From: Prosthecobacter debontii
GTDB lineage: Bacteria; Verrucomicrobiota; Verrucomicrobiia; Verrucomicrobiales; Verrucomicrobiaceae
Assembly: GCA_945869675.1 (NCBI GenBank)
Contig: CAMBPS010000017.1
Coordinates: 1 to 46,367, forward strand
Direction: 5' to 3'
Length of the DNA stretch: 46,367 bases
The notes under the pieces: model-generated
Database searches by the model: none
The model's input: only the letters and a program-made list of their open reading frames with translations
Told to the model about the DNA's origin: nothing
Position numbers and translations under genes: made by a program
Shown: positions 7,040 to 35,590 of the stretch, one piece after another
How positions within the stretch are numbered: position 1 is the first letter of the stretch
Layout: every line of letters begins with the position of its first letter

Positions 7040-7042
7040 AGA

Positions 7043-9256: not shown

Positions 9257-9308
9257 CCCAAACCTACGGTCTGGGACCACTCTTTATCGCAGGGTGTGAG
9301 TTTAGTAC

Positions 9309-19378: not shown

Positions 19379-19453
19379 TCGTTCAGGTGGAGCGAGAGAT
19401 TGAGATTACGCGGGTTTTTGGAGGTTCTTGCGAAAGCGAAGAAAACATCTCTC

Positions 19454-22400
19454 TCAGTGATTAAACACAAACTCCGCTGAGTTCAGTAAGCTCCATAGCA
19501 CATCCTCGACGGCTGCCTGACGGTTCGTGACTTCTACATCCAGTGCCTTGCCGGCAATGGCCGATTCTTCGGCAGTCGGCAAGCGTGAGTAACAGGCGAG
19601 GTAGAGTTCCTCCATAATCTGCTGCGGCTTGAGGTCGCTCTTGGCCAGTCGCATCACGCGGCCTTTTGTGTTGGTAAGCATTTCCTGCAGCTTGGTGGAG
19701 TTCATCAGGTGCAGCGCCTGCACCACGCTGGGCTTGGCATCGCGTTCGCAGGGGCATTCTGAGCTGGCGTTGGGTCGGCCAAAGGCGTCCATGAATTGGC
19801 TCTCAAGCTTGTGGTTCCACGTCTGTTTCGCCAGCGCATCCAATGGCATTCCAGAGAAGACTTCGCGGGTCTCGGTGACTGCGCAGACAGCATCGAGAAG
19901 CGATTCCGCAGGCAGACGGCGGCGGTAGCTGCGACTGTAATTCTTCAAGTCGGCAACGTTCGTCTCGTTTGGCAGGCTGCTGAGGCGATAGGTTTGCGAA
20001 AGCAGGATGTTCCGCATGAGATGTTTCAAATCATAGCCGTGCTTCACAAAATCCTGCGCCAGCCAGTCGAGCAGTGGCGCATTGCTGGGCGGGTTCGAGG
20101 CGCGGAAGTCATCCACAGGATCGACGATACCACGGCCCATGAAGCTGGACCAAATGCGGTTCACAATGGCAGGCGCAAAGTAGGGATTGTGTGGGTTGGT
20201 CATCCAGTCCGCCAGCACGGCGCGCGGATCCTGGGTGTCTGCAAGAGCGATTTCTTTGTCTGCGGGCGGACGCGGTTTCAGGATGGCCTTGGTGACGGGA
20301 TGTTCAATGCCCGCTGCACCCGAAGCGGACCAGATCTGCTCGGGTTCACCGCTGATCGGCGCGGAAATGCCTTGGCCCTTGTGCTTCATTTGCGTGAAGA
20401 ATGCGGCCATCTGGTAGTAGTCGGTGAGGTCCCATTTCTCGGTCGGATGATGATGGCACTTCGCGCATTCAAGACGCACGCCAAGGAAGATCTGTCCGAT
20501 AAAAGTGGCGGCATCTACGGGTATGCGTTTGTCGCGCCAGATTGCCACTGGGCCGTGCTGATGTGTGTTGCCTTCGGCGGTCAGGAGTTCGCGCACAAAG
20601 CGGTCCCAAGGCTTGTTCTCGCGAAAGCTTTGACGAATCCATTGATCCAGCAAATACACCGGCTTCACTCCGACGCGTGAGGGATTGGGGCGAATCAGGT
20701 CACCCCACTTGATGGCCCAGTGGTCGGCCCACTCTGGGCGCTGCAGCAGAGCATCGACCCATTGCTCATATTTTTTAGGATCCTTGTTTGTGGCAAAGGC
20801 CCGGGCTTCAGCCACGGTGGGTAGCATGCCGATCGCATCCAGCGTGCTGCGACGCAGGAACTCAGCCTCTGTGCAGGTGTCACTCGGTAGATGGCCGAGC
20901 TTGAGTAGGCGTGCATAGACGAGTTTGTCGATCTCATTTCGAACGGTCAGCTTGGCGTAGTTTTCCGGTGGCAGCAGTTTCTCCGCAGGCACGGCCACGC
21001 GTGAGATGGCTACTTGTCCCATGTAACGTGCCACGATGACGGTCTCACCACTTTCGCTGGTCGTCTTCATCCGCCCGGTTTCATCCACTGAGGCGATGGA
21101 TTTTTCAGAGGAAATGTAGTCGGTCAGCCCCGTGACATCACGGGTTGTCCCATTGCTGTAGTGTGCCGTGACCTTAAACGACCCCGATTCATGTTTGCGG
21201 TAAGTCTTCTCGGTCGGCACCACTTCAATGCTCGTCAGTGCGGGCTGGTCAGGGGTTTCATAGGGCATGCCCTGGCGAATCCACTCGGCGATCGTCTTCG
21301 CCGATTCGGAGTCCGGCTCAAAACGCTGCCCACCTTCGTGCTGAACGCGAACCACAGACTTTTGCAGCAGCAGGCTGTCTTCAGGTAAAGATGGGAACAC
21401 CCGGCGACCACGTGAGTCCTTGACCAACTCCATGTAGTCGCCTTTGGGATCGTAGGCAAAGATCGAAAGTTTGAAGCCCGCTTGTCCGGACGCTTTCGCA
21501 TGGCAGCTACCTAGATTGCAGCCAGCCTTACTGAGCACAGGCAGGATGTCCTGCGTGAAGGACAATGCCTTGGGATTTAGCCTGGCTGCTGCAGCCGCAG
21601 GTCCGGTCAGTTTCGTGAGCTTCTGTTTTTCATCGAATTGGAAGACGTCGCCGACATCGGTGGCGGCGAAGATGCTTTTACCATCGGCTGTCATCACGGC
21701 GGCGTTCGGCAAAGATTCGAGAGTGGCGACCTTTTTGTCTGTGCCTGAGGTGAAGGCAAGTCGCACGCCGTCATGCGTTTTTAAATCGGTGACGACATGC
21801 ACATTGCCGTTGTCATTGAAGTAAGTGAGGCTGGTGGAATCTGGTGACCAGAGTAGCGCGTTCACCGGCGAAGATTTGTCTCCTAGAAGCATCAACATCT
21901 CCTTGCTGGCTATGTCCCAGACTTTCAGATCTTTGTCGGCGCTGCCTGTGGCCAGCCATTTGCCATCCGCGCTGAAACCCAGCGTCACAAGGTGTCCCAC
22001 ATGACCTTCGATCTTAGCGGTTTCCTTTAGCGAGGTGGCATCCCAAACCTTGGCCAGATTGTCAGCACCTCCAGTGGCGATCTGTTTGCCATCGCGACTC
22101 ATGGTGAGGCTCAAGACATTGTCCGCATGCGCCTCAACGGTCTGTGCAGGTTTTGGCTCGCCAAGTTTCCAACGATGCAGCACGCCTTTCTGGCTTATGG
22201 CTCCATCCGCAAGAATCAGGGTGGCATTGTCCATGAGAAATACCGCGCCTGTGATGCGGCCCTCCAGCGTCGCGGTCAAGGTATGCGCTAGCGGCCAGGT
22301 TGGTGCTTCAGTCTCTGCTTTGGTCGATACCTTGGTTTCAGGGGTCTTCCAAACTAAGACTGCTCTGTAACCACCTGCGGCGAGCAGGGTGCCTTGCGTA

Positions 22401-22969
22401 TTCCAGGCGAGCGACTGCACCACGTCTTTGTGTCCCTTGAGTGTCGCCACTACTGGCGCATCCTTTGCCGTCACATCACGAATCAACACTTGGTTGCCGT
22501 GTCCGACGGCCAGATGTTTGCCATCAGCACTTAATGCCATTGCCGTTGCGGGTGTGTGGTTAGCAGGCAGTATCGTTAGTTTATCCGCAGGCGTCAGTTC
22601 TCCAAACTTCTTTAGCGCGGCATTATCCCAGGGTGCTCCCGCATTCACCCAGGCTTTTAATAGGTTGATCTGCTTTTCCGGCATCTGCTTCTTTGGCGGC
22701 ATGTGTGCATCCCCGGGATCATTGAGAACTTTGATCAGCGCGCTTTGATCAGCCTCTCCTGGCTGGAATGAAGCTCCGTTTTCACCACCCTTCAGGGCTA
22801 GTTCACGCGTCTCCAGTGACAGTCCACCTTTCTGTTTCTCCGCATTGTGGCAGCTCAGGCACTGCGTCTTCAGCAGACCCATTGCCTGGGAAGGATGCAC
22901 CGTCGCCACCTCCGCAGTGAGCGCGGAGGTGAAAAGAATAAAGACAAGAGCATGGCAACTTTGGATCAT
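19454..22969 (-). CDS. Fused PSCyt1-WD40-PSD1 cytochrome (DUF1549/DUF1553)
   Basis: A 1171-residue exported protein that joins in one chain what cluster 1 encodes in two genes. Order: signal peptide (residues 1-19); PSCyt1 cytochrome with CLSCH (Cys37, Cys40, His41); WD40 repeats at about 130-460 (for example MSRDGKQIATGGADNLAKVW); a second cytochrome region with CNLGSCH (CX4CH, Cys484, Cys489, His490); a BIG2-like segment; DUF1549; CAKCHHHP (Cys835, Cys838, His839); and DUF1553 to the end (LLNSAEFVFNH). It probably handles electrons at the cell envelope with its DUF1501 partner. ATG 22969 gives a clean signal peptide; a TTG at 22981 would add four residues. First gene of cluster 2. Confidence 0.88.
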   Translation of the reverse strand: MIQSCHALVFILFTSALTAEVATVHPSQAMGLLKTQCLSCHNAEKQKGGLSLETRELALKGGENGASFQPGEADQSALIKVLNDPGDAHMPPKKQMPEKQINLLKAWVNAGAPWDNAALKKFGELTPADKLTILPANHTPATAMALSADGKHLAVGHGNQVLIRDVTAKDAPVVATLKGHKDVVQSLAWNTQGTLLAAGGYRAVLVWKTPETKVSTKAETEAPTWPLAHTLTATLEGRITGAVFLMDNATLILADGAISQKGVLHRWKLGEPKPAQTVEAHADNVLSLTMSRDGKQIATGGADNLAKVWDATSLKETAKIEGHVGHLVTLGFSADGKWLATGSADKDLKVWDIASKEMLMLLGDKSSPVNALLWSPDSTSLTYFNDNGNVHVVTDLKTHDGVRLAFTSGTDKKVATLESLPNAAVMTADGKSIFAATDVGDVFQFDEKQKLTKLTGPAAAAARLNPKALSFTQDILPVLSKAGCNLGSCHAKASGQAGFKLSIFAYDPKGDYMELVKDSRGRRVFPSLPEDSLLLQKSVVRVQHEGGQRFEPDSESAKTIAEWIRQGMPYETPDQPALTSIEVVPTEKTYRKHESGSFKVTAHYSNGTTRDVTGLTDYISSEKSIASVDETGRMKTTSESGETVIVARYMGQVAISRVAVPAEKLLPPENYAKLTVRNEIDKLVYARLLKLGHLPSDTCTEAEFLRRSTLDAIGMLPTVAEARAFATNKDPKKYEQWVDALLQRPEWADHWAIKWGDLIRPNPSRVGVKPVYLLDQWIRQSFRENKPWDRFVRELLTAEGNTHQHGPVAIWRDKRIPVDAATFIGQIFLGVRLECAKCHHHPTEKWDLTDYYQMAAFFTQMKHKGQGISAPISGEPEQIWSASGAAGIEHPVTKAILKPRPPADKEIALADTQDPRAVLADWMTNPHNPYFAPAIVNRIWSSFMGRGIVDPVDDFRASNPPSNAPLLDWLAQDFVKHGYDLKHLMRNILLSQTYRLSSLPNETNVADLKNYSRSYRRRLPAESLLDAVCAVTETREVFSGMPLDALAKQTWNHKLESQFMDAFGRPNASSECPCERDAKPSVVQALHLMNSTKLQEMLTNTKGRVMRLAKSDLKPQQIMEELYLACYSRLPTAEESAIAGKALDVEVTNRQAAVEDVLWSLLNSAEFVFNH

Positions 22970-23295
22970 AGTTCGGCTCAAACTACGCCCTCACCTGCAA
23001 AGCTCTTGCCATTGATCCTAAGTGTAATCCGCTAGGACCGCATCTTTCTCCGCTTTTTACAGTCACCCAAGCCGGGGCACTTCGTTTGAAAAACAATGGG
23101 TGGGTTGGATTTCAGACCTTGTTGGGTAAGGTTTGAGATGCCGTTCATGGGTTGCAGATTCGGTTTATCTCGGAGCTTCACAAACTCTTAACAATCTGGC
23201 TGATTACAAGATTGACTTCTCGGGTTTAGAGTAAGAAACGAGTAGTCATCAACTTTTGTTCAAAGGCTCCGAGTGGAGCGTTTTATTCTCATTTT
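22970..23295. other. Divergent intergenic region between cluster 2 and the GTPase operon
   Basis: No gene is visible in these 326 bases. They must hold promoters for both the minus-strand cluster 2 and the plus-strand GTPase operon. A TTGACT near 23212 resembles a -35 box, but no good -10 lies at the right distance. A short hairpin stands just before the GTPase start and is listed separately. Confidence 0.6.
23266..23288 (+). promoter_or_regulatory. Leader hairpin with T-rich tail before the GTPase gene
   Basis: GCTCC-gagt-GGAGC (23266-23279) followed by GTTTTATT lies 16 bases before the ATG at 23296. It has the outline of a small terminator or of a 5'-UTR hairpin that could affect expression of the whole operon. 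The stem is only 5 bp, so chance cannot be excluded. Confidence 0.3.
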
Positions 23296-25104
23296 ATGGT
23301 AACCCCAAAAATTCGTCCTTTTGCACCTCGAGTTTGCCTTCTGAATTGTGCCAATGGTGAGCGGTCGATTGTGGCGGCAACCCCTTTTATTTTTGGGGCG
23401 AGTGCAGCCGTTGATTTTCGTTTAGCTTCCCCGAATTGTCCGCCAGTGCTTGGAACGATCCAACAGCGTAGAGATGAATTTGAAGTCACGATTCATAGCG
23501 ATGGCACTGCTCTCGTCGATGGTGCCCCAGGGTCGCAGTTTACGCTCATCCTGGGCGAGGAGCACACGCTGAGCGCTGGTGGTGAGGTTTTAGCTTTCAA
23601 ATGCTGCGCTGATCCTCAGGAGTGGTTGGCCTTTGGTCATGAGATGTTCTGGCACTTTTTCGATGCGGAGGCGCGTCAGTGGTATGGCCCCTTCAGTCCT
23701 GAGGAATTGCGCGATTATCTGACGAAGCAGACACCTGAACAAGCGGCGGAAAACTTAGTGATGCCAGCGGGACTTCGTGACGTGGGTTTCTTTGTGAAAG
23801 ACATCCTTTCCATTTTACCAGAGCGTGTCGTTGTCACTGAGCGTGATGATCATGCGCAGGCAGTGCATGCTGAGCCGGTTAACACGGAGTACGGTGAATT
23901 TACCTGTCCTGTGTGCTGGTTTAAATTTGATCGTGGAGATGCCATGAATATCTCTGTTCATGCGGCTTTGCGCGGTGATCCGTTGCTTGGAGAAGATGCC
24001 ATGCAACGCTTTCACGCTACCCGTTTCACGGATCGTGGGCAGGCCATTGATGCCATGGGTATTGCCGCGCCTGATCTCGCTTGTCCCCATTGTCGTCGCA
24101 AGTTGCCTCCCGGCTTCATGGAGACCCCGCACCATATCTTTTCGGTCGTCGGGGCGCCATCATCTGGAAAGTCCTATTATCTAAGTGTCCTCACGCGGAC
24201 GTTGCAGACGAGTCTGTATCAGAATTTTGGGGTCACTTTTCGTGATGCTGATCCTTCTGAAAATGTCATTCTCACCCAAATGCGCACGCAGCTGTTTTCA
24301 GCCTCCACGCCTGAAGACGCTTTCTTAGCCAAAACAGAGCTCGAAGGCATGCTCTACGAGACACTTCCGCGCCTTGGTCGGAAGGTGCGTCTGCCCAAGC
24401 CGTTTGTCTTTAAACTCTCGCGCAGGCATGATCACGAGACAGATTTTTCCATTGTCTTCTATGATAACGCGGGTGAGCATTTTGAGCCGACACGCAACAG
24501 TGCCGATTCCCCAGGTGCGCAGCACATTGCCGTAGCTTCTGGTATTTTCTTCCTCTTTGATCCACTGCATAACACGGAGTTTCGTCAGCGCTTAAAAGGT
24601 GTTCGCGATCCGCAAATTCAAAGTCGCCGATTAGATCAGCAGGATGTGATTCTGGCAGAAACAGAAGTTCGTATCAAAAGCGTGCTCGGTTTGGATTCGC
24701 GGGACTGCATCGATACACCTTTTGCGGTGATGGTGGGCAAGAGCGATACGTGGGAGTCTCTGTTAGGTCCTGAGCCGTTGCTTCCAAGTATCGAAAAAGG
24801 AGCCATTTTAACCTCTAACATTCGGATCAATTCTGATCGTATCCGAACGCTCCTTCTGGAGCTTTGTCCAGCCATCGTCTCCAATGCTGAAGCTATATCA
24901 TCCAATGTTTGTTACTTTGCGATTAGTCCGTTAGGTTGTTCTCCGGTTCAGTTCACTGACCTCGAAGGGCATACCCGTATTGGACCAGATCCACAGCTGA
25001 TGAACCCTAGGCATGTGGAATGTCCGACACTTTGGGTTCTCTCGCAGATTGCACCAGAAGTAGTGCCGAAGGTGGTGGTCGATCGTTCAGAAAATATGAT
25101 GTAA
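23296..25104 (+). CDS. P-loop GTPase with FHA-like, GYF_2-like and zinc-ribbon regions (DO-GTPase2-like)
   Basis: A 602-residue cytosolic protein. Residues about 28-105 read as a degenerate FHA-like beta-sandwich (FIFGASAAVDFRL ... TALVDG ... LSAGGEVLAF). About 115-165 contains a GYF_2-like motif (WYGPFSPEEL from residue 129). A split zinc ribbon follows, CPVC at 204-207 and CPHC at 263-266, with an insert between. The P-loop domain has Walker A GAPSSGKS (286-293), a G3-like DNAGE (390-394) after FSIVFY, and a possible G4 variant VGKSD (Lys482, Asp484). This layout recalls the Double-GTPase 2 family described from bacterial conflict systems; that name is from memory and needs a profile search. 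It is the first gene of a seven-gene operon, directly before its presumed GTPase-associated partner. Confidence 0.75.
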   Translation: MVTPKIRPFAPRVCLLNCANGERSIVAATPFIFGASAAVDFRLASPNCPPVLGTIQQRRDEFEVTIHSDGTALVDGAPGSQFTLILGEEHTLSAGGEVLAFKCCADPQEWLAFGHEMFWHFFDAEARQWYGPFSPEELRDYLTKQTPEQAAENLVMPAGLRDVGFFVKDILSILPERVVVTERDDHAQAVHAEPVNTEYGEFTCPVCWFKFDRGDAMNISVHAALRGDPLLGEDAMQRFHATRFTDRGQAIDAMGIAAPDLACPHCRRKLPPGFMETPHHIFSVVGAPSSGKSYYLSVLTRTLQTSLYQNFGVTFRDADPSENVILTQMRTQLFSASTPEDAFLAKTELEGMLYETLPRLGRKVRLPKPFVFKLSRRHDHETDFSIVFYDNAGEHFEPTRNSADSPGAQHIAVASGIFFLFDPLHNTEFRQRLKGVRDPQIQSRRLDQQDVILAETEVRIKSVLGLDSRDCIDTPFAVMVGKSDTWESLLGPEPLLPSIEKGAILTSNIRINSDRIRTLLLELCPAIVSNAEAISSNVCYFAISPLGCSPVQFTDLEGHTRIGPDPQLMNPRHVECPTLWVLSQIAPEVVPKVVVDRSENMM

Positions 25105-25120
25105 GTTATCGTGATTTACC

Positions 25121-27775
25121 ATGGCTTGGCAACTTATCTACACCTCAGCACCTCGCCTGCTTGAAGCCGGTCGAACGGGCTTTGGCACGGTGGCTAGGCA
25201 TCGGGCTGTGGGTGAACTCGTTGCTGGTGCCGTTGAGCGTTTGTCACAGTTTGCACGGCTGGCAGGATTGGGCGCACGCAGAGTCGTTCGCAGTCATCGC
25301 ATCATCACTGCTGGGGCTTCACAGGTTCATGTTTTTAGCTGCATTAGAGATGCGGGATCAGACTACACAGGTCGCACAAATCATCTGGCGCATCATCTGA
25401 TTGCGGAAGCCCGTGAAGTCAGAATGGCGGCAGAGGCAGGTATCACTCCAGCAGATATCCTGATGCAAATGCACTGGCGCACGTCATGGAGTGAGTCGCC
25501 ACGTTTTTTTGAGCCTCTCGAAGAAGTCTCGCTCATGAGTCTTCGGGCTCGTATGCTAGGATCTGCTTGGGAACATCTGATTGGAAGTGCTAACTTCAAT
25601 GCTCTGCCTTTACAGACACCACGCTGTTTCATCATTCTACCTGGTGAAACGGATGCGCTACCATTGATTCAAGAATCACTGAAATCCATGGGTGCAGAGT
25701 CTGCGCAGGTCAGCTTCACCACTCAATTAGAGCCGACGGATGACGTGGCCGGGCTTCGTTGGGTGGCCATGAATGACAGTTCACCACTCCGACAACAGGC
25801 GGACGGCATCGCACGTGCAGTGCTTAATCTGACGCAAGCGCAATCGTTGCCAAAGCTTGTTACTGCATCGAAAGAGCCAGCTATTCGCAGTTCAAGAGAA
25901 TCGCTGCTGCCGATAAATGCGCAGTCTTATCCAGCTATCAAAATGAGTCTGCCATCAATGACTGCCCCGAGCAGTTTCATGGAGGCTTTGCATCCTTTGC
26001 CAAAAGCACGTTCAGGAAGCTTTGCCGCCATCATGCTTACGGCAGTCTTATTGATAGGGGCTGGCATCACGGCGTATTTTTGGTTGGATCAACAAACGAA
26101 ACCGCAGAGCCCCAGAACGGCAGTCGATCTGGCTAAGCGGGTTGATGAACTCTGGCAAAAACATCGTTTGGCGCTGCCTATGACTTCCATTTGGTTAAAA
26201 GGTCAGGCTAATGCAGGACTGATCGAATCCCATGATAAGGCGCTTCGTCTGCTCATGCAGAGTTTGCGAGAGCCGCTTCAGTTGATCGATATTCCACGTC
26301 CTGAATCGACTCAGGATGAATTCATGGATATGCTGCAAAGCTATAGTCAATGGCAGAGGTTCGTCAGTGACTCTGCGCGTGATGCCGTTTGGTCAGGAGA
26401 GGCAGTGACGGAGATCAGGATCCAAGCTCGTGTGCGATTGGATCAAGAGGATCGCTTGTGGAAAAAATTCAGCACAAGCTTTGAGCGAGTACCGCTTCAT
26501 CCTGATGTGCTGAGGCAAGAAATTAGCGCTCAAGTATTGAAGCGAATGAATCAAACTACCGCGCCAAATGGCGTGGTTGAAGACTGGTGTGACATCATCA
26601 CCATGACCCTGATTCCTAGGCCTCCTTGGCCGGATTTATGGGTGCGAATCTCTCGGTTTCCAGCTTTCCCTGCGGCCTTAGCGATTTCGGAGCAAGCCAT
26701 CTTGAGGGAAGCGGCAGAAGATAGCGAAGTCCCCCCATGGTTACAGCAGTTTGCTCAAAAACGACTACAACAGTGCGCCGAGATGAGTCGGACTGATGCG
26801 GAAGTGCGCACTGCCACGCAAGCGGCGCAGAAGACTTCTCAAGCCGAGCTGCAAATCACGGCGGCAGATGGCCCCACTTCAATGCATCCGCGCTACATCA
26901 TTTTCAAATCGGTAGAAGAAGGCTTGAGTCATGCTTTAGAAAAGTTGCCCGATCTGCCAGTGCAAGATGACATGCAAATCATCGCTGGTGCTGCTGGATT
27001 TAGTGAAAGTAATCTCGTGCGCTGGCGCGCCCTTGGTGGCCCAGGCGTGTATCGCAAAAGCTTCATCGATTCTATGACTCTGGAGATCCGCGATCAGCGT
27101 CTGATTAAAGTTCCGACGGAGCAAGATTCCTGGCGCATCCTCGGGCGTTCATCGACCGGCAGTTCTGTTCTTTTTGAGGTCTTATTTTTGGCGCGGAAGG
27201 CCTTGCCAACCGAGGTTTGGCACACACACCCAGCTTTCAGTTTTCAGAGCCAGCATAATGGTCAGCGCACCCTGTTGGATGGGTCAGCAGCGCGTTGGCT
27301 GTCACAGATTTCATTCATCGGAGCTCCGTCAAAATTGCGTTTGCAGAGTATCGAAGATCCGGCGCGGCTCTATTGCCTGCGTCTTGAGGCTGATCAGGCT
27401 GTGGTGGAAAATGAAACGAAGCAGCAGCGTTCAGCTGTCGCGGTTTCAAGGGTGACCGCCATCAGTGCTGAGATTGAAAATTTAAAACAGGGCATTCGCA
27501 TTGATCAGCAGCGCCAAGTCGAGATCGCTGAAGGGAATTTGGCTAAACGGGAAAAAGAAGAAAGTCAGACCCGATCCCAAGAAGCAATCTCAAACAAAGA
27601 ACGACGCATCATGGAAATGGAAGAAGAGGTGCGTGGTCTCACAGCCCTAACGGCAGAGCCTGCGCCGCTTGTTGGCATTCCTTCGGGTAGATATTCCCTG
27701 ATGGCCATCCTTTCTGATCCGGATGGTCATGAAAATGCATCCCGGTTGTGTGAGTTGACCATCACCTCTCAATAA
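25121..27775 (+). CDS. GAP1-N2-like GTPase-associated protein with one membrane segment
   Basis: An 884-residue protein. Residues about 1-250 match the remembered pattern of the GTPase-associated protein 1 N-terminal domain type 2 (LIYTSAPRLLEAGRTGFGTVARH ... SQVHVFSCIRDAGSDYTGR ... NHLAHHLI). One membrane segment follows at about 297-322 (FAAIMLTAVLLIGAGITAYF) with basic residues on its N-side, so the GAP1 part should face the cytosol and the large C-terminal part the periplasm. A coiled-coil stretch lies at about 785-850, before a small C-terminal beta region. It starts 16 bases after the GTPase gene. Inference: it senses or regulates the GTPase and passes the signal through the membrane. 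Confidence 0.7.
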   Translation: MAWQLIYTSAPRLLEAGRTGFGTVARHRAVGELVAGAVERLSQFARLAGLGARRVVRSHRIITAGASQVHVFSCIRDAGSDYTGRTNHLAHHLIAEAREVRMAAEAGITPADILMQMHWRTSWSESPRFFEPLEEVSLMSLRARMLGSAWEHLIGSANFNALPLQTPRCFIILPGETDALPLIQESLKSMGAESAQVSFTTQLEPTDDVAGLRWVAMNDSSPLRQQADGIARAVLNLTQAQSLPKLVTASKEPAIRSSRESLLPINAQSYPAIKMSLPSMTAPSSFMEALHPLPKARSGSFAAIMLTAVLLIGAGITAYFWLDQQTKPQSPRTAVDLAKRVDELWQKHRLALPMTSIWLKGQANAGLIESHDKALRLLMQSLREPLQLIDIPRPESTQDEFMDMLQSYSQWQRFVSDSARDAVWSGEAVTEIRIQARVRLDQEDRLWKKFSTSFERVPLHPDVLRQEISAQVLKRMNQTTAPNGVVEDWCDIITMTLIPRPPWPDLWVRISRFPAFPAALAISEQAILREAAEDSEVPPWLQQFAQKRLQQCAEMSRTDAEVRTATQAAQKTSQAELQITAADGPTSMHPRYIIFKSVEEGLSHALEKLPDLPVQDDMQIIAGAAGFSESNLVRWRALGGPGVYRKSFIDSMTLEIRDQRLIKVPTEQDSWRILGRSSTGSSVLFEVLFLARKALPTEVWHTHPAFSFQSQHNGQRTLLDGSAARWLSQISFIGAPSKLRLQSIEDPARLYCLRLEADQAVVENETKQQRSAVAVSRVTAISAEIENLKQGIRIDQQRQVEIAEGNLAKREKEESQTRSQEAISNKERRIMEMEEEVRGLTALTAEPAPLVGIPSGRYSLMAILSDPDGHENASRLCELTITSQ

Positions 27776-27789
27776 TCCAAGAACGAATT

Positions 27790-30700
27790 GTGAAAGCTGT
27801 TGCCCAGACCCTTGAAATCATCCGTTCCTCATTGCAGACAGGTCTGCTTTCTGGTGCTGTCGAATCTGCTGCTGCTCATTATGCACGGCTTTGCTTAGAA
27901 GCGGAGATCCGTCTTGAAAAGATCTCTGCCATGCTTGTTAAAGGCAGTGATTACCAAGCCCTACAAACAGCTGAAGAAGATCCCCCGTTGCTTGACCTCG
28001 TCGCAGCTTTAAGTTTTGGCGGGGAAAAAGCTTGGATGGATTTTTGTCAAGCGCATCAGCTTCCTATTGCCCAACGGCTGGATGCTAAAACGGTGCTGGC
28101 GCTTGATCGACTTTATGCTCAGGGGGTGACGGCAAATCATCCACTGTATAAGGACTTCCGAGCGGCGGTGCTTTCGCGCGAGGATGAAAAAGCGTTGCGC
28201 ATTGTGCGAACTATTTTAAAGCTCAACCCTAATGATGAAAATGCTCGTTCAGAGCTTCTGCGTCTGGAAAATAAACATCTCCAAGATCTGCTGGAAAAGC
28301 TCCGAAATGTCCTGAAGACCGATGATGAAGAGCGTATTGCTAAGCTGGCTGAATCCTTGCAACGCATCTCATCCGAAGAGAAGCTACTTCTTATGCCAGA
28401 CTATGTGCAGGCCGATTACATCCGCCGAGCCTTACGTCGTCGGCAGGCGGAAGGAAAGATTCCGACACTGCTTGATGAGGCTGCTTCTTTACGTGGGCAG
28501 GCAGATTGGCGCGGAGTCGCTCTGGCTTTGGAAATCGTGTGTGAACTCATTCAATCACATGAGGTCGAGTTATCATCAGGCACTCTGACTCAGCAATTAG
28601 AGTCTCTTACTCAGTATGTGCGGGAAGAGCGTCTGGCCAGCGAACGAAAACGTGGTTTTGAAAATGCACTCGCCACCTTCACTGCCTTTGCTCATGAAGC
28701 CGAAACAAGACTGCTTGTCGGAGCTGGACCTTCGTTTGCTGAATTGTTTCGCCTGGATGAAGACTTTGTCCGTCGCTGGCGTGACGTAGAGAGCTTTGAG
28801 ATGCCAGTCGCAGATGCAACGCTTCAGCGTCTAAGGCAAGTTGGGCAGTCGATTCGGGCACGTCTCGATCAGCAACAGAGTCGGCGTCGAACTCGGTCTT
28901 TGCTTTCGGTTGCTGCCATCATCGTCTTATTGTTAGTCGTCGCCGCTGCAGCCAATCATGGCTGGCGCGCACGCGCTTTTGCCGATGAGTTGGTGAGTTA
29001 CAAAGCGCGTCAACTTTGTGAGCCAGCGGAGAAGCTGATTGCCAGCCTGCGTGCGGAAGACGCTCAGATGTTACGCTGGCCATTCTTGAAAACAAAGGTC
29101 GAGGAGATTGATGCTTGGACACAGCAGTCACGCGAGCTTTCCTTAGAGGCAGATCAAATACTGCACGCCTTGGAATCTGAAGCGGCAAAGGCTTTCGCAG
29201 GCTCAAATCCAGCGGGGATTTTGAAACGCCTGGCTGATGCACGCTCTCAAATTGGTCAACTTCCCATTGATCTGGCACAGTCTGCGAACAATCGACTGGC
29301 CGCCCTGAAATCAAAATCTGAACTCATGCTAAGCAGCGTGAATGAAGAGCGTAGCGGCAGTGGACGGAAAGCGCTGGATGAGATCACGGCTTTGCTGGAC
29401 AAGGATCTAAGTTATGAGAGGTCTGCGACCGAGGTCGCGGTCACCGTTCAAAAAATTGAGACACTGCTGCTCAGCCTCGAAGGATGGATGAAGCCCGAGG
29501 CAGATTCCCTGCAATTACCTGCCGATCTCGAGGCCCGCGTCAAAGCTGCTAGATTGCGGGTGACGGGTTTCAAGACTGAGCTGGATCGTTTCTCTAAAGT
29601 GCGTGAGGCCAGCGCGGGAGCTTTGACGCTGGCCACTTACCAGAAGTCCTTGATCGCCTGGCAGGACATTCGTTTTGCTGAGGCCGCACCGGCTTCCGTC
29701 ATCTTGGGGCAAATTCCAAACGAAGAACAATTCTTGGCAAAGCTTTTGATGGGGGGCGATCTCTCACAATGGAAAGCCGCAGTTGAGGATGTCGGTGGTG
29801 CTCAGATGATGCCTGTAGCGCCTATGGACAATGATTTGAAAATTCTCTTGGCCTTGAGGGATGATACCTATCTCAATGGCGTCTGGGAAAACATCGTGGT
29901 CGATCATGCGCATGGTCAATCCACCCGCAGTGTTTGGTCCAAAGGACCGCTGGAGCAAAGTCGGATTGGGGATACTCTGAGCCGTTGGAGTGGTCTGGCC
30001 TTTGATGCCCATGCAGATGATACCGGTGCAGCCTTTGTAAAAAGTGAGTTCAAGCGTGTCGCCGTGGGCAGTAGCGATCAGGGGCAAAGTGTGAGATCGA
30101 GCAAATCCAGCGCGGCGACGCAGTTTATGGATTCATTGCAGCTCAATCGCATGACAGATATTACGGGCGAACGTTGGCAGCGCAGTCTTCTGGAGATGTT
30201 TGACAAGATCGTTCAAAACAAAGAGGCACCGGCTTTGGTGAAAGCTCATGTCATGGTTGAGTTGGAGCGTATCACGCGGTCACAGCCGTTTGCCTGGGGC
30301 CTACACCTCGCACCGACGCTGCGTGAGGATTTGGCAGAATTGCAGAAGATCATTGGCGGTTATCCGCTTCGCAGTGAAGATTGGCTGCTCCCGAAAGTCC
30401 GCAGCACGCTTGGAGTTTCGTTGGCTCAATTTTTCGATGCTCGTCAAACTCGTCACTATCAAAAAGAAGCCCAAGCTAGGCGCAAGTTGCTGCGGGAGAT
30501 CCAGCTCGCAGGTTTAAAATTCGGCGGTTATGTCGAAAGTGATCTTTCTTTGCATCTCAACAACGCAGCTCGTGTCCGCCCTGAGTTGTGGGCTTTGGGA
30601 AGGACTGGACCAGTGTTATTATCAGCCGAGGCTGAGACAGCTCCTGCAAGTGTTTTTAGGCTAAGTCCCATCTTCTTTATTCCAGCTGATCGCGCCGCAC

Positions 30701-30792
30701 TGATGCAACGCTATCGATTAGCACTAAGCGGCGGTTCTTCAGAAGTAGCAGCCCCTGTTTCGACTGAGACACCCTTTTTAGAAGCACGCTAA
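27790..30792 (+). CDS. Large single-span membrane protein of the GTPase operon, unknown family
   Basis: A 1000-residue protein with no family I recognise. It starts at a GTG, 14 bases after the previous gene. Residues 1-365 are largely helical with a TPR-like stretch (KALRIVRTILKLNPNDENAR). A single membrane segment spans about 371-393 (SLLSVAAIIVLLLVVAAAA), preceded by RRRTR, which predicts the N-terminus inside. The following 600 residues, partly coiled-coil-like, would be periplasmic. The topology repeats that of the GAP1-like protein encoded just upstream, suggesting that the two form a membrane-spanning scaffold. A distant likeness to IcmF/TssM-type proteins was considered but cannot be supported. 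Confidence 0.75.
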   Translation: MKAVAQTLEIIRSSLQTGLLSGAVESAAAHYARLCLEAEIRLEKISAMLVKGSDYQALQTAEEDPPLLDLVAALSFGGEKAWMDFCQAHQLPIAQRLDAKTVLALDRLYAQGVTANHPLYKDFRAAVLSREDEKALRIVRTILKLNPNDENARSELLRLENKHLQDLLEKLRNVLKTDDEERIAKLAESLQRISSEEKLLLMPDYVQADYIRRALRRRQAEGKIPTLLDEAASLRGQADWRGVALALEIVCELIQSHEVELSSGTLTQQLESLTQYVREERLASERKRGFENALATFTAFAHEAETRLLVGAGPSFAELFRLDEDFVRRWRDVESFEMPVADATLQRLRQVGQSIRARLDQQQSRRRTRSLLSVAAIIVLLLVVAAAANHGWRARAFADELVSYKARQLCEPAEKLIASLRAEDAQMLRWPFLKTKVEEIDAWTQQSRELSLEADQILHALESEAAKAFAGSNPAGILKRLADARSQIGQLPIDLAQSANNRLAALKSKSELMLSSVNEERSGSGRKALDEITALLDKDLSYERSATEVAVTVQKIETLLLSLEGWMKPEADSLQLPADLEARVKAARLRVTGFKTELDRFSKVREASAGALTLATYQKSLIAWQDIRFAEAAPASVILGQIPNEEQFLAKLLMGGDLSQWKAAVEDVGGAQMMPVAPMDNDLKILLALRDDTYLNGVWENIVVDHAHGQSTRSVWSKGPLEQSRIGDTLSRWSGLAFDAHADDTGAAFVKSEFKRVAVGSSDQGQSVRSSKSSAATQFMDSLQLNRMTDITGERWQRSLLEMFDKIVQNKEAPALVKAHVMVELERITRSQPFAWGLHLAPTLREDLAELQKIIGGYPLRSEDWLLPKVRSTLGVSLAQFFDARQTRHYQKEAQARRKLLREIQLAGLKFGGYVESDLSLHLNNAARVRPELWALGRTGPVLLSAEAETAPASVFRLSPIFFIPADRAALMQRYRLALSGGSSEVAAPVSTETPFLEAR

Positions 30793-30794
30793 TC

Positions 30795-31433
30795 ATGTCA
30801 GCCGATATCCAGTTCCAATTGCAATGGCGTGGCAAAAGCCATGGCCCGTGGACGTATGCGGAGATACAAGAACGATTGGTTGAAGGAGAGATCCACTCCC
30901 TGTATCAAGTGTGCATTGACGGTGTCTGGATGCCATTGCGGGACTTTATTGAAAAAACCGAAGCAACTGCACTGCAACAGCAAGCCGCCGATAGAGCGGT
31001 TCGCATTCGACAGCAAGAGGCCGAAAAAGTGATGAAGGTTCGTGCTCGTGTAAGAGGGCCTATCGAAGGTCCGATCAAGAAGCCCAATCCTTTCGCCAAT
31101 CCTCCTCCTGTTTTTGTGAAGGGAGCTTCGCCATTGCCTCTGTCATCTGGCGAGTTCAGCCACTCGGAGATCGCCCCGACCTGCTGGCTGGGAGTGGCTG
31201 CCTTTGTTGTGAGTTGTTGCAGTTTTGTGCCTTATTTAAATCTGGTGAGTTGGCTGCCGAGTCTGGTGCTGGGACATTTGGCCTTGGCTCAGATCAAGAG
31301 GGAGCCTAGCATGGAGGGTCGTGGGCTGGCCCTTGGTGCTGTCATCATTGCCTATTTCATGTTAGTCTTTGCCGCTTGGAGCTTCTTATTGATGCCGAAC
31401 CTCTTTTACCGCATCTTTCCTATTGCAGGCTAA
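30795..31433 (+). CDS. GYF_2-DUF4190 membrane protein
   Basis: A 212-residue protein. The N-terminal 60 residues carry a GYF_2-type motif (WRGKSHGPWTYAEIQERL), a module that binds proline-rich or other peptides. A basic, proline-containing linker follows (PIKKPNPFANPPPVFV), then a DUF4190-like pair of membrane helices with the typical LALAQIKREPSMEGRGLALG between them. It starts 2 bases after the previous stop, so coupling is likely. The GYF_2 module is shared with the GTPase at 23296 and ties the two genes to one system. Probable membrane adaptor. Confidence 0.75.
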   Translation: MSADIQFQLQWRGKSHGPWTYAEIQERLVEGEIHSLYQVCIDGVWMPLRDFIEKTEATALQQQAADRAVRIRQQEAEKVMKVRARVRGPIEGPIKKPNPFANPPPVFVKGASPLPLSSGEFSHSEIAPTCWLGVAAFVVSCCSFVPYLNLVSWLPSLVLGHLALAQIKREPSMEGRGLALGAVIIAYFMLVFAAWSFLLMPNLFYRIFPIAG

Positions 31434-31447
31434 CTTTCTTCACTCTC

Positions 31448-32347
31448 ATGTCATCTGATCCATCCATCTCAAGTGAGTCCTTACTCGGCAAAAATCCTTT
31501 TCAAGGTTCCATGTGGATGCTCGACTGGACACGCTCTGATCCAGAGCGCCGACTTGGCTTTAAACCGGGACGCTTCACCTCACCCAACAAGCTGCTTTCA
31601 TTGCTGGCTGGCTTGGCCATGACTGTGGCGTTTTATGCCATTCTACAAATCGGATTGGCTGGCTGGCCGGCTGCACACTGGTTCATCGATATGTTCACGA
31701 AGCGTGGGCCTTGTCCGTATCCGACGATGCTCTTTTTCTTTTGGGCCTTGGCGATGATGTTTTTTAAGTGGCGTAAGTTTCAGGTTCAGAAGCGTGCTCT
31801 AACCTTGCCGGTGATGCCGCAGCAACCGGACTTTGAACTGACACCTTCCACGGCACGCGCTGTTCGTGAGCGCATGAGCGCTATTGTGGATAATCCGCAT
31901 CATTTCATTTTGCTGAACCGCATCGACCTAGCTTTGGCCAATTTGCATAACATTGGCCAAACAGCCGATGTGGCGGCCATCATCAAGATTCAGGCGGAGA
32001 ATGATGAGGCGCAGATCGCTTCCAGTTATGCCCTGGCTCAGGGCTTTCTTTGGGCGATCCCGGTGCTGGGCTTTATCGGGACGGTTCAGGGGCTCAGTCA
32101 GGCGATTGGTGCTTTTGCCGGCACGCTGGCCGCTGGTGGTGATATGACGGCGCTGCGTGGTTCCCTGCAAAACGTCACGGGTGGTCTGGCCACAGCGTTT
32201 GAAACCACTCTCATAGCGCTGGTTTGCGCGCTGATCCTGCAACTGCTGGTAAGCTGGTTGCAGACGATGGAATCCGAGTTTCTGGATGAATGCAACGAGA
32301 TCTGCCACAAGAATGTGGCAGGTAAACTAAGGCTCAATGCCAACTAA
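31448..32347 (+). CDS. MotA/TolQ/ExbB-type channel subunit
   Basis: A 299-residue protein. An N-terminal cytosolic part and two membrane helices come first, then the signature MotA/TolQ/ExbB region: WAIPVLGFIGTVQGLSQAIG, then TGGLATAFETTLIALVCALILQLL. Proteins of this family form pentameric ion channels around two MotB/ExbD/TolR subunits and turn ion flow into movement. I use ATG 31448, 14 bases after the previous gene; the frame is open further upstream but that overlaps the DUF4190 gene. Two ExbD-like genes follow at once, so a complete stator-like unit is encoded. Confidence 0.85.
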   Translation: MSSDPSISSESLLGKNPFQGSMWMLDWTRSDPERRLGFKPGRFTSPNKLLSLLAGLAMTVAFYAILQIGLAGWPAAHWFIDMFTKRGPCPYPTMLFFFWALAMMFFKWRKFQVQKRALTLPVMPQQPDFELTPSTARAVRERMSAIVDNPHHFILLNRIDLALANLHNIGQTADVAAIIKIQAENDEAQIASSYALAQGFLWAIPVLGFIGTVQGLSQAIGAFAGTLAAGGDMTALRGSLQNVTGGLATAFETTLIALVCALILQLLVSWLQTMESEFLDECNEICHKNVAGKLRLNAN

Positions 32348-32350
32348 CTC

Positions 32351-33199
32351 ATGAGAGCGCGCTTCGGCAGGCAGAGCGGAGCTGGCGTCAGCTTCTTCGC
32401 TTTCCAGGACATCATCACTGGCACATCAGGTTTTCTGATCGTGCTGACTTTGTTCCTGGCTCTGAACCTGGACGAAGCCCTCGTCGAAGGCAGCCACACC
32501 AAGCCTTTTGCAAAGAGGGAAGAGGAGTTGCGCTCTATGCAGTCGCGTATTGTCTCGGTGAAAAATCTGGTGGCAGATCTCCAGAATCGACCTGCTGAAG
32601 ATGAGACCACTCTGCGTCGTATGATTGGACAGTGGACAACGACTATAGCGGAGTTGGAATCACCTTTGACACCTGGGCTGGATAAGGCCTTTGATGCTAC
32701 AGCGATGGATCGTGAATTGCGTGAAACGAAGCAAAAGTTGCTCACGAAGATCGAGAAGATGAATGCCAGCATCCATCAAGCCGATCTGCTTTCTTCAGGC
32801 TCGAATAAGGATGCGCCTGATCTGGAAAAGAAGATCAAGGATGCTCAAAGCTCACTGCAGCGTGTGCAATCACGTCGGAACGTCATCAGTCTGGTTCCTG
32901 AACTGAGTGACAACAAAAAAGAACCGATTCTGGTGCTGGTTCAGGGATCGCTGATTCGCTTTCAAAGAGCGAATGGCCAACCGGCTTCTGCGGGGTCGAT
33001 CCCTGATTTTGTCAACTATCTGCGCGCTGCGACTGCGGCGACGCATTATGTTGTCTTTTACTTCAAGCCTTCGGGCTCCAACCACTTTGAATCGTTGACT
33101 CGCATTGCCCGGCAAGAGGGTTTTGAGATCGGTTACGATGTCATTCCTGAGGAATTGGATGTGGAGTTTCATCACAATGTGCCAGCCGCCAAGCCATGA
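32351..33199 (+). CDS. TolR/ExbD-like single-span protein, copy A
   Basis: A 282-residue protein. A short basic N-terminus leads into one membrane helix with an early Asp (FFAFQDIITGTSGFLIV, Asp20), matching the ion-binding Asp of ExbD, TolR and MotB. A long coiled-coil region (about 50-165) and a C-terminal globular domain (EPILVLVQGSLIRF ... HYVVFYFKPSG) follow, predicted outside the inner membrane. No OmpA-like peptidoglycan-binding domain is seen, unlike MotB or ZorB. It starts 3 bases after the ExbB-like gene and overlaps copy B by four bases (ATGA). It is a divergent paralogue of copy B. Confidence 0.75.
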   Translation: MRARFGRQSGAGVSFFAFQDIITGTSGFLIVLTLFLALNLDEALVEGSHTKPFAKREEELRSMQSRIVSVKNLVADLQNRPAEDETTLRRMIGQWTTTIAELESPLTPGLDKAFDATAMDRELRETKQKLLTKIEKMNASIHQADLLSSGSNKDAPDLEKKIKDAQSSLQRVQSRRNVISLVPELSDNKKEPILVLVQGSLIRFQRANGQPASAGSIPDFVNYLRAATAATHYVVFYFKPSGSNHFESLTRIARQEGFEIGYDVIPEELDVEFHHNVPAAKP

Positions 33200-34140
33200 A
33201 ACGCAAGCTACATTCCAATCAGCAGGATAGCCTGGATCTGCTTCTAGATACCCTGTGCAATGTTTTTGGTGGCATCATCATGATAGCTTGTCTGCTTGCA
33301 ATGTTGAGCCGACCGCGAGTATCTAAGGAAGCTACTAATGCGGACAATCCTATCGATCATGAGTCGGGTATTCTGATGGAAAAACGAATCGAGATGGCGC
33401 AGGCCGAACTGGATGGGTTGGAGAAGCTGCGCGCACAGTTACAAAGCGAGGATGATCCATCACTACGACCTCTTATCACTCAGCTTGCTGCTTTGAAAAA
33501 GACTGCTGAAAAACGGCGCCAAGAAAAAGCTAAGCAAGACGAGATCGCTACAATCAAAGCGAAAGAGAAGGTGCGTGATTCAGGCAATGAGATTGCTCGA
33601 CTCAGGGCGCAAGAGCAAGAGATGGAAAAGAAGCTCGGCATCGCGAATCGTAATGCGGAAGCCGCTGCCCAGATGCGGCAAGCGTTAGAAAAGAAGCTGG
33701 CGGATCTTCAATTGGAGTTGGAGGACGTCAGCCAACTTAAGATCGAGAAACTGCGATTCCCGCGTGAACGAAACATCAATAAGACGGCCTCACCGATCAT
33801 CATTCAGTTCGGTCAGGTTTTCCCCCTTAATGACAGTGCTGGAAATCCAAATCCAAGGGTCACTCAGGTGCGTTCGGTAAATGGCACCTTCACCGCCTTT
33901 GCTAAAAAAGGTGAAGGCCTAAGCCCAAAGAATGATGCGGCATCACTGCGGGATATTTTAAAGCAGCTAGGACGCGGCAACCGTTACCTGACACTTTACG
34001 TTTATCCTGACTCCTACGCCACCTTGCGTGAGCTCAAGAAGCTGATTTATGAGGTCGGTGTGGACTACGGAATGAACCTCAGAGAAGAGAACAGCGTTCT
34101 CCTCTTTGATCCGAAGGGAACTAAACCTGCACCACTCTAA
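33196..34140 (+). CDS. TolR/ExbD-like single-span protein, copy B
   Basis: A 314-residue protein. Its membrane helix starts SLDLLLDTLCNVFGGIIMI, with Asp18 as the likely ion-binding residue. A very long coiled coil covers about residues 50-190, followed by a C-terminal globular domain (SPIIIQFGQVF ... NRYLTLYVYPDSYATLRELKKL) whose strand order and wording parallel copy A. The basic N-terminus predicts N-in topology. Its ATG lies in a four-base overlap with copy A. It is the last gene of the operon; its stop lies only 2 bases from the stop of the convergent metallo-hydrolase gene, leaving no room for a terminator. Confidence 0.75.
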   Translation: MKRKLHSNQQDSLDLLLDTLCNVFGGIIMIACLLAMLSRPRVSKEATNADNPIDHESGILMEKRIEMAQAELDGLEKLRAQLQSEDDPSLRPLITQLAALKKTAEKRRQEKAKQDEIATIKAKEKVRDSGNEIARLRAQEQEMEKKLGIANRNAEAAAQMRQALEKKLADLQLELEDVSQLKIEKLRFPRERNINKTASPIIIQFGQVFPLNDSAGNPNPRVTQVRSVNGTFTAFAKKGEGLSPKNDAASLRDILKQLGRGNRYLTLYVYPDSYATLRELKKLIYEVGVDYGMNLREENSVLLFDPKGTKPAPL

Positions 34141-34142
34141 TC

Positions 34143-35507
34143 TTACCACAGGTCCACGGCCACGTGTGGCTCAGGACGCAGAATCTCGGTGCCGATCAAG
34201 GTCTGTGCGAAGCGTGCCATGAACCATTGCTGAGAAGTTTCTTCACCATGCACCATGAGGAGTTTCTTTGGACGCACTTTCTCCACGTATTGGGCAATGC
34301 CCTCACGAGTTGCATGAGCACTGAGGTCAAAGCTTTCGATACGTGCGTGCAGTTCGACAGTGGGTTGATCTGGGGAGAGTTTTAGCTTCTGCCCCTGCTT
34401 CGCTGTGCGCAGTCGGTAACCGGGGGATTCAGGATCGGTGTAACCGACAAAAGCCACTGCATTGCGTGGGTTTTCGATAAAACGTGTGGCGAATCGATTG
34501 GAGGTCGTGCCTTCGGTCATCATGCCGCTGGAGAGGGCATAGATGGCGCGGGGCTGATATTCAAACTGGCGGGGTCCGCGACGGCGGCCTTTTGGCTGCA
34601 CGAGCATGTTGATGTCTTCCAGCAGGCGGAAACCTTGGTAGTTGCGGCGGCTGCGATCGCTGTAGTGATCATAAAGAACGGTTACTTTAGTGCCGAGACC
34701 ACCGATGTGCAGAGGCATCTCAGGGATCAGACCTTCCTGACGCAGTTCATGCAGCATGAGCATGACTTCCTGGGTTTTACCCAGTGCAAAGACGGGGATG
34801 AGCACGGAGCCATTGGCATCATAGGTATCGCGAATGACGGCTGCTAGGCGCTCCTTTTCAGCACGGCGAGTGAAGCCTGGGGCGCGGTCGTAGGTGCCGC
34901 GTGTGGTTTCCATGACTAGAACGTCGATTCCTTCTGTCGGGAAGTCTGCGGCCATGCAAATGGTCTGGGATTCAAAGTTCACGTCACCGCTGTAAAACAG
35001 GGTATTTCCGTTCTCTTTGATCATCACACCAGTGGAGCCTAAGATGTGGCCTGCATCGTGGAAGCTGGCCGTCATCTCCGTGCCAGGAATGGCAAACGGC
35101 TTCACTAAATCACGGTAACTATACTGAGTTCGGTTTTCATCTAGCTCTTTATGCGTAAAAAAAGGATACTCGTTGATGCCTAACTCCTCACGCTGAGAGG
35201 TCATGACATTCACCGAGTTGTGCAGCATTCCACTGGCGATTTCACCCGTCGGCTCGGTCATGATGACGGGCGTATTAGGCTGCTTTCGCATCAGCACTGG
35301 CAGCGAGCCAATGTGGTCATGGTGAGCGTGAGAGATGATGATGGCGTTTGCTTTCTCCTGTGGCAAAGGACCAAAATCAGGCAATGCGTCAAACCCCACC
35401 TCCTTCGGATGCATCCCAGAATCTAGAACGACACGGTGATCACCCGACTCTAAAAGGTAGCTGTTGGCGCCGATCTCGCGGCGGCGGGTAAGATTCAAAA
35501 ATCGCAT
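34143..35507 (-). CDS. Beta-CASP metallo-beta-lactamase-fold protein (RNA-processing exonuclease-like)
   Basis: A 454-residue protein of normal family length. It has the metal-binding HxHxDH motif as SHAHHDHIGS (His60, His62, Asp64, His65), a further His in DAGHILGS, Asp in YSGDVN, the beta-CASP segment with VLIPVFALGKTQEVM and the C-terminal SGMMTEG and HGE (LLMVHGEE) pieces. This is the archaeal/bacterial CPSF-like group, which processes RNA, rather than a beta-lactamase. ATG 35507 begins with the family-typical MRFLNLTRRREIGANSYLL. It reads toward the GTPase operon and is divergent from the secreted protein at 35591, with 83 bases between their starts. Confidence 0.88.
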   Translation of the reverse strand: MRFLNLTRRREIGANSYLLESGDHRVVLDSGMHPKEVGFDALPDFGPLPQEKANAIIISHAHHDHIGSLPVLMRKQPNTPVIMTEPTGEIASGMLHNSVNVMTSQREELGINEYPFFTHKELDENRTQYSYRDLVKPFAIPGTEMTASFHDAGHILGSTGVMIKENGNTLFYSGDVNFESQTICMAADFPTEGIDVLVMETTRGTYDRAPGFTRRAEKERLAAVIRDTYDANGSVLIPVFALGKTQEVMLMLHELRQEGLIPEMPLHIGGLGTKVTVLYDHYSDRSRRNYQGFRLLEDINMLVQPKGRRRGPRQFEYQPRAIYALSSGMMTEGTTSNRFATRFIENPRNAVAFVGYTDPESPGYRLRTAKQGQKLKLSPDQPTVELHARIESFDLSAHATREGIAQYVEKVRPKKLLMVHGEETSQQWFMARFAQTLIGTEILRPEPHVAVDLW

Positions 35508-35590
35508 GGTAGGTAGGTCAGAACGTAAGGGAAAGGTGACACTAAGCCGCGTTTGAGTCGTGGCAAGCACTCAGAAACATTGACATAGAG

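What the first reader, a model, noticed from the sequence alone, without database searches (positions are those of the whole stretch)
23296..34140. Seven-gene GTPase - GAP1 - ExbB/ExbD-like operon: candidate undescribed envelope or defence system
Seven same-strand genes with gaps of at most 16 bases encode a P-loop GTPase with sensor-like regions, a GAP1-N2-like membrane protein, a 1000-residue single-span protein, a GYF_2-DUF4190 protein, an ExbB/MotA-like channel and two ExbD-like proteins. GTPase plus GAP1 pairs are known from computational work on bacterial conflict systems; ion-driven stators are known from Zorya, Tol and Exb. I do not recall a described system joining both. Inference: GTP hydrolysis in the cytosol gates, or is gated by, an ion-driven complex spanning the envelope. 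A non-defence role (transport, motility, envelope upkeep) is equally possible.
Basis: partly seen in the sequence, partly recalled or inferred. Interest (0 to 1): 0.9.

Follow-up and report, generated by a model that had tools for sequence, protein, structure and literature searches.

The report
GTPase-linked ion-motor operon in Verrucomicrobiota
Seven neighbouring genes encode a membrane machine in which a GTP-powered switch inside the cell always travels with its own ion-driven motor and large parts reaching across the cell envelope; the arrangement recurs across a whole bacterial phylum and was not found in the papers searched, although its switch half was predicted in 2020.

Summary
Window 23296-34140 carries seven + strand genes with gaps of 16 bases or less: DO-GTPase2-type GTPase, GAP1-N2 protein, 1000-aa single-span protein, GYF/DUF4190 protein, ExbB/TolQ-type channel and two ExbD-like proteins. 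The genes travel together. In 388 Verrucomicrobiota genomes, this operon's own stator subfamily (37 copies) lies within 10.3 kb of a GAP1-N2 gene in 30 cases; the other 7 sit at contig ends or beside gene 3. No free-standing copy was seen. Conversely, about half of the GTPase/GAP1 systems lack the stator. The GTPase-GAP1-N2 core is a described, computationally predicted 'conflict' system (Kaur et al. 2020), but its main text mentions no stator. I judge this a new, stator-coupled variant. Most likely it is a GTPase-switched, ion-driven envelope machine with a two-subunit axle. Evidence for phage defence is weak: no copies on plasmids, phages or viral contigs; no recurring defence neighbours; and in Opitutae the core sits at a fixed chromosomal place. 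'GAP1' means GTPase-associated, not GTPase-activating. A functional precedent for GTPase-controlled stators exists (Myxococcus MglA with AglRQS), but the protein families differ.

The parts
23296..25104 (+). Gene 1, 602 aa: cytosolic switch. N-terminal FHA-like region (degenerate here), GYF-like stretch, zinc-ribbon pair CxxC...CPxC (Cys204/207/263/266), TRAFAC-type GTPase domain (Walker A Lys292, DNAGE 390-394, GKxD 481-484)
   Evidence: Invariant residues in 44 relatives; DO-GTPase2 in 41/44, FHA in 10/44, GYF_2 in 13/44; no TM found
25121..27775 (+). Gene 2, 884 aa: GAP1-N2 domain (1-128), one TM about 296-322, about 560 aa presumably periplasmic and highly variable
   Evidence: PF20013 E=9.5e-19, 37/37 relatives; identity falls from about 80% to 20-45% after the N-terminus within the genus; TM by hydropathy
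27790..30792 (+). Gene 3, 1000 aa (GTG start): helical cytosolic half, one TM (370-388, positive inside), helical plus beta-rich periplasmic half
   Evidence: Hydropathy; model mean pLDDT 86.7; no Pfam family shared by members; third core gene of the system across the phylum
30795..31433 (+). Gene 4, 212 aa: GYF-like N-terminus and DUF4190 with two TM helices
   Evidence: DUF4190 E=1.9e-10; GYF_2 E=0.12, sub-threshold; TMs
31448..32347 (+). Gene 5, 299 aa: ExbB/TolQ-type stator channel, three TM helices; motifs PVLGFIGTVxGL and VTGGLATAFETT
   Evidence: MotA_ExbB E=9.6e-9; both motifs in 52 of 53 relatives; TMs
32351..33199 (+). Gene 6, 282 aa: ExbD-like axle subunit A, TM starting at Asp20, coiled coil, small C-terminal domain
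   Evidence: Asp conserved except Ser in L022/L023/L132/L136; homologous to gene 7
33196..34140 (+). Gene 7, 314 aa: ExbD-like axle subunit B, TM helix with Asp18, long coiled coil 53-179, TolR/ExbD-like fold 190-304
   Evidence: Model and structure comparison: TolR Z 7.2, ExbD Z 6.2 and 6.0; Asp conserved except Gly in L105/L154

Best explanation
The operon encodes a trans-envelope machine. Shown by sequence: a soluble zinc-ribbon GTPase carrying FHA/GYF-type recognition regions, two single-span proteins with large predicted periplasmic parts (the GAP1-N2 protein and the 1000-aa protein), and a dedicated ExbB/TolQ-type channel with two different ExbD-like subunits. Inferred: the GTPase binds GAP1 and the 1000-aa protein at the inner membrane; its GTP state assembles or releases a 5:2-type motor whose axle is a gene 6/gene 7 heterodimer; ion flow past the axle aspartates moves the periplasmic domains, which act on, or report from, peptidoglycan or the outer membrane. 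The role would be envelope maintenance or surface-related work rather than a mobile defence cassette. The motor is an optional power module on the GTPase-GAP1-gene 3 core.
For: Genes and domains. Motor parts: MotA_ExbB match, conserved Thr motifs equivalent to TolQ T145 and T178 by my motif alignment; TolR/ExbD-like domain. Exclusive linkage of this stator subfamily to the core. Distances of genes 1, 2, 5, 6 and 7 correlate at r 0.90-0.97 over 34 loci, though shared species history contributes. Heteromeric axle: two paralogous ExbD-like genes side by side; in 47 pairs 42 keep both Asp, 5 lose one (either gene), none lose both. Envelope rather than mobile role: no homologue on plasmids, phages or viral contigs; fixed neighbourhood in about 26 Opitutae core loci.
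Against: No biochemistry; GTP binding and ion flow are inferred. No complex could be modelled, so a direct GTPase-motor contact is unshown. The core occurs without the motor in about half of the systems, so the coupling may be loose. No OmpA-like, TonB- or TolA-like partner was found in the operon, so the load is unknown. The system is patchy within its genus, which is unusual for housekeeping.
Confidence: 0.5

Rival explanations
1. It is an anti-phage or conflict system: the variable periplasmic part of GAP1 or gene 3 senses an invader, the GTPase switches, and the ExbB/ExbD module acts as the effector, by collapsing the ion gradient or by signalling mechanically as in Zorya.
For: Kaur et al. 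2020 (PMC7159879) predict GAP1-N2 systems to be conflict systems; the GAP1 periplasmic part evolves fast; patchy within the genus, two versions coexist in some genomes; ZorA is the nearest PADLOC match to gene 5 (E=2.6e-6).
Against: No ZorC/D/E, no nuclease or helicase; no PADLOC family in more than 2 of 114 flanking ORFs (no baseline run); absent from plasmids, phages and viral contigs; fixed locus of the core in Opitutae; motor subfamily co-inherited over the phylum.
Confidence: 0.25
2. It is a surface-motility or force machine like Myxococcus gliding, in which a GTPase positions a MotA-plus-two-MotB-like motor.
For: Same parts list in kind: GTPase, associated regulator, one MotA-like and two MotB-like subunits (PMC9120999 and PMC9389320).
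Against: No Glt-like outer-envelope parts recognised in the operon; unrelated GTPase and regulator families; core occurs without motor.
Confidence: 0.08
3. It is a Ton-like transport or export system, the GTPase regulating uptake or secretion across the outer membrane.
For: ExbB/TolQ-type channel and TolR/ExbD-like domain.
Against: No TonB, TolA or TonB-dependent receptor recognised in the operon or as a recurrent flank; large coiled coils and a GTPase are not expected.
Confidence: 0.1

Closest known systems
[quoted passage not shown] 2020, PMC7159879)
   Same: DO-GTPase with zinc ribbon next to a GAP1-N2 protein, GYF-containing membrane partner, membrane-associated, reported from verrucomicrobiae
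   Different: ExbB, ExbD and MotA are not mentioned in that paper's main text (supplement not readable here); no fibronectin type III component found; an uncharacterised 1000-aa third core protein is present; GAP1-M domain detected in only 17 of 37 relatives and not in the window
TolQR / ExbBD stators
   Same: Channel family, conserved pore Thr motifs, axle Asp, TolR/ExbD-like periplasmic fold
   Different: Two different axle proteins with long coiled coils; no TonB, TolA or Pal recognised; tied to a GTPase
Zorya (ZorAB plus ZorCD or ZorE)
   Same: MotA/ExbB-family ion motor, suggested envelope sensing
   Different: Gene 5 is 299 aa without the long ZorA tail; no recognised peptidoglycan-binding domain; no ZorC/D/E; GTPase core instead
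Myxococcus gliding motor AglRQS with MglA/MglB
   Same: One MotA-like and two MotB-like subunits under control of a GTPase
   Different: MglA is a Ras-like small GTPase and MglB its GAP, not the DO-GTPase2 and GAP1 families; Glt partners are not recognised here

Membership tests
GAP1-N2 GTPase-centric system (Kaur 2020) | GAP1 protein with GAP1-N2 domain | tested here: met
   PF20013 E=9.5e-19, 68.3 bits vs cut-off 24; 37/37 relatives
GAP1-N2 GTPase-centric system (Kaur 2020) | DO-GTPase with N-terminal zinc ribbon(s) | tested here: met
   Family level: DO-GTPase2 in 41/44, invariant Cys pairs and GTPase motifs; window protein alone is below the Pfam cut-off
GAP1-N2 GTPase-centric system (Kaur 2020) | Protein with fibronectin type III repeats | tested here: not met
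   No fn3 match in the seven proteins at E 1 nor in gene 2 and 3 relatives. The paper calls these repeats rapidly evolving and the systems variable, so I file the operon as a variant, not a typical member
GAP1-N2 GTPase-centric system (Kaur 2020) | GAP1-M middle domain | tested here: inconclusive
   17/37 relatives match, window does not
ExbB/TolQ - ExbD/TolR stator | MotA_ExbB family channel with conserved pore motifs | tested here: met
   PF01618 above cut-off; motifs in 52/53
ExbB/TolQ - ExbD/TolR stator | Axle subunit with TM Asp and TolR/ExbD periplasmic fold | tested here: met
   Both Asp in 42/47 pairs, at least one in all; gene 7 model TolR Z 7.2 and ExbD Z 6.2, modest but first in rank; gene 6 fold not predicted
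ExbB/TolQ - ExbD/TolR stator | 5:2 assembly conducting ions | not testable with these tools
   Needs complex structure or flux assay
Zorya | ZorA with long cytoplasmic tail | tested here: not met
   Gene 5 is 299 aa, PADLOC ZorA match partial (24-124 of 505); NCBIfam ZorA far below cut-off
Zorya | ZorB peptidoglycan-binding (OmpA-like) domain | tested here: inconclusive
   No Pfam OmpA match in gene 6 or 7; gene 7 fold is TolR/ExbD-like; binding untested
Zorya | ZorC/D or ZorE effector | tested here: not met
   No such match among the seven genes
MglA/AglRQS gliding | Ras-like MglA and roadblock MglB | tested here: not met
   GTPase and partner match DO-GTPase2 and GAP1-N2 instead

The most novel reading that the evidence does not exclude
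A GTPase-gated ion motor with an obligate heterodimeric axle, in which one protonatable aspartate on either of the two unlike axle chains is enough: a natural asymmetric rotary motor dedicated to a DO-GTPase/GAP1 switch, kept across the phylum Verrucomicrobiota.
Probability: 0.3. Interest if true: 0.85.

Novelty: new variant of a known kind. Interest (0 to 1): 0.7.

Why it matters
It gives a predicted but unstudied class of bacterial GTPase switch (DO-GTPase/GAP1) a concrete candidate output, an ion-driven motor, and shows that the pairing is stable over a phylum. If the axle is a heterodimer with a dispensable aspartate on one side, it would allow a direct test of how many protonation sites a 5:2 motor needs; whether two unlike axle proteins pair up is an open question also for AglRQS. 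It also warns against filing GAP1-N2 systems as phage defence by default.

Tried and rejected
Zorya membership: rejected (no tail, no ZorC/D/E). Defence island: 114 flanking ORFs scanned with PADLOC, scattered hits, no recurrent family; no random-region baseline was run, so this is weak evidence. Mobile carriage: none found on plasmids, phages or viral contigs. Gene 3 fold: the AlphaFold model is good (pLDDT 86.7) but Foldseek and VIA-align gave only common helical arrangements (Z at most 8.7 over 76 residues), so no relative is claimed. PDB sequence hits of gene 7 are coiled-coil noise. Island by base composition: GC is low over the whole right half of the window, not just the operon. Promoter and terminator scans are at chance level. 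Phyla beyond Verrucomicrobiota could not be surveyed: the one genome-wide scan found 537 relatives but kept only the best 80, nearly all titled Verrucomicrobiota; one bin labelled Polynucleobacter and one labelled only 'bacterium' are the exceptions.
Full report
What is there. Window 23296-34140 carries seven + strand genes with gaps of at most 16 bases. The window is contig C17 of a 4.04 Mb, 93% complete genome; its nearest operon relatives are Prosthecobacter and Brevifollis (Verrucomicrobiaceae) records. Pfam supports GAP1-N2 (gene 2), DUF4190 (gene 4) and MotA_ExbB (gene 5) above cut-off, and DO-GTPase2 (gene 1) below cut-off in the window protein but at E 0.01 or better in 41 of 44 relatives. 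Gene 1's GTPase motifs and two Cys pairs are invariant. Ten of the 44 relatives carry an FHA domain and 13 a GYF_2 domain; in the window the FHA-like region lacks the usual phosphopeptide-binding residues, by my reading of the sequence.

Motor parts. Gene 5 has three TM helices and the motifs PVLGFIGTVxGL and VTGGLATAFETT; both occur in 52 of 53 relatives. By motif these place invariant Thr at the positions of TolQ T145 and T178; the HMMER alignment confirms the second register only. Genes 6 and 7 each have one TM helix starting near a conserved Asp and are homologous to each other (coiled coils may inflate the score). Gene 7's model has a TM helix, a long coiled coil and a C-terminal domain for which E. 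coli TolR (Z 7.2) and ExbD (Z 6.2, 6.0) rank first, with the next unrelated fold at 5.1. Over 47 gene 6/gene 7 pairs, 42 keep both Asp, three have Ser in gene 6, two have Gly in gene 7, and none lack both. Some of these rows are the same genome taken from two collections, and the two Ser genomes are close relatives, so the independent losses number about one in gene 6 and two in gene 7.

Do the genes travel together? In the genus, the seven genes are syntenic in genome after genome, down to 29% identity for gene 2; in L034 and L035 the stator trio is turned round but still adjacent. A GAP1-N2 survey of 388 Verrucomicrobiota genomes found 80 copies in 72 genomes, and fetched loci show gene 1 - gene 2 - gene 3 as a core with the trio present in many distant lineages. 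The reverse survey with gene 5 over the same number of phylum genomes gave 37 hits of 365 bits or more and then a gap down to 233 bits. Thirty of the 37 lie 2.1-10.3 kb from a GAP1-N2 gene, against about 0.2 expected; by genome, both 33, stator only 2, GAP1-N2 only 39, neither 314, p=2e-25 (related species inflate this p). Of the remaining seven, five sit beside gene 3 and two are cut by a contig end. The weaker, 140-233-bit stators are not enriched with GAP1-N2 (7 genomes observed, 6.1 expected). So the core can lack the motor, but this motor was never seen without the core.

History. The linked gene 5 sequences are separated from the unlinked stators by a starred branch (only three unlinked rows). 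Stator presence changes at least ten times on the GTPase tree. Pairwise distances of genes 1, 2, 5, 6 and 7 correlate at 0.90-0.97 over 34 loci. This fits an old association, inherited together and lost repeatedly, although gain and loss cannot be told apart by the count and shared species history contributes to the correlation. Genomes with motor-less core loci have no copy of this motor subfamily elsewhere, except genomes such as G128 that carry a second, motor-bearing locus.

Function. Within the genus the GTPase core is about 80-90% identical while its N-terminus is near 50% and GAP1 after its N-terminal domain is 20-45%. Such variability suits either an invader sensor or an envelope adaptor. 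Against a mobile defence role: no relative on 72,556 plasmids, 50,697 phage records or viral contigs; no defence family in more than two of 114 flanking ORFs (no baseline); window neighbours are ordinary Verrucomicrobia genes; and in Opitutae the core sits in one neighbourhood in about 26 loci, with genes that look like an ECF sigma factor and ptsI upstream and nadD, panB and gpsA downstream (names by reading the sequences). For defence: the 2020 prediction, patchiness within the genus, two versions in some genomes.

Known or new. Kaur et al. 2020 (PMC7159879) describe DO-GTPase plus GAP1-N2 neighbourhoods, including in verrucomicrobiae, and a planctomycete subtype with paired GYF domains fused to trypsin or a TM-rich region. 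Their main text holds no mention of ExbB, ExbD, MotA, TolQ or protons. 'GAP1' there is GTPase-associated protein 1. No later experimental paper on these families was found. Zorya is excluded as a family. The AglRQS motor bound by the GTPase MglA is the nearest functional precedent. I therefore call it a new, stator-coupled variant of the GAP1-N2 GTPase systems.

What is shown and what is inferred. Shown: gene content, motifs, exclusive linkage, recurrent co-occurrence, conserved channel residues, single-Asp loss on either side. Inferred: GTP binding, ion flow, 5:2 assembly, heterodimeric axle, the direction of control, and the envelope role.

Noticed in passing
L214 397-4308 (G000:C91), also L215: A second, GTPase-free stator trio (470-aa ExbB-like protein with zinc-ribbon-like start and two ExbD-like proteins of 295 and 515 aa) is present across the genus; in G000 it lies next to genes that look like bamA, ompH/skp and lpxD. 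It may be a general envelope motor of these bacteria.
   Followed up: partly
L078, L171-L207: In Opitutae the GTPase-GAP1-gene 3 core, without motor, sits at a fixed chromosomal place between ECF-sigma/ptsI-like and nadD/panB/gpsA-like genes.
   Followed up: partly
L022, L023, L132, L136 (gene 6) and L105, L154 (gene 7): Loss of the axle Asp in one of the two ExbD-like proteins, never in both; in the gene 6 losers gene 7 has an additional Asp four residues on (LLLDTLCDLLG).
   Followed up: partly
L142 14612-16597, L143 14582-16567: A second GAP1-like protein of 661 aa lies between gene 2 and gene 3.
   Followed up: no
L216 11677-13038: GYF-like start, zinc-ribbon-like region, TM and what looks like a trypsin-like domain next to genes 3, 6 and 7, resembling the GYF-trypsin partner described in 2020.
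   Followed up: no
L025 and L035 (genome G006), L026 and L034 (genome G021): Two versions of the operon in one genome, one of them with the stator trio divergently transcribed.
   Followed up: no
window 34143-35570: Beta-CASP/RMMBL metallo-beta-lactamase-fold RNase-like gene on the - strand, ending 2 bases from the operon's end.
   Followed up: no
window 41160-43034: Adenylate/guanylate cyclase catalytic domain with HAMP domain.
   Followed up: no
window 1070-9280 and 18038-22981: Two clusters of DUF1501 and PSCyt/PSD1 proteins, some with WD40 propellers, typical of Planctomycetes-Verrucomicrobia genomes.
   Followed up: no
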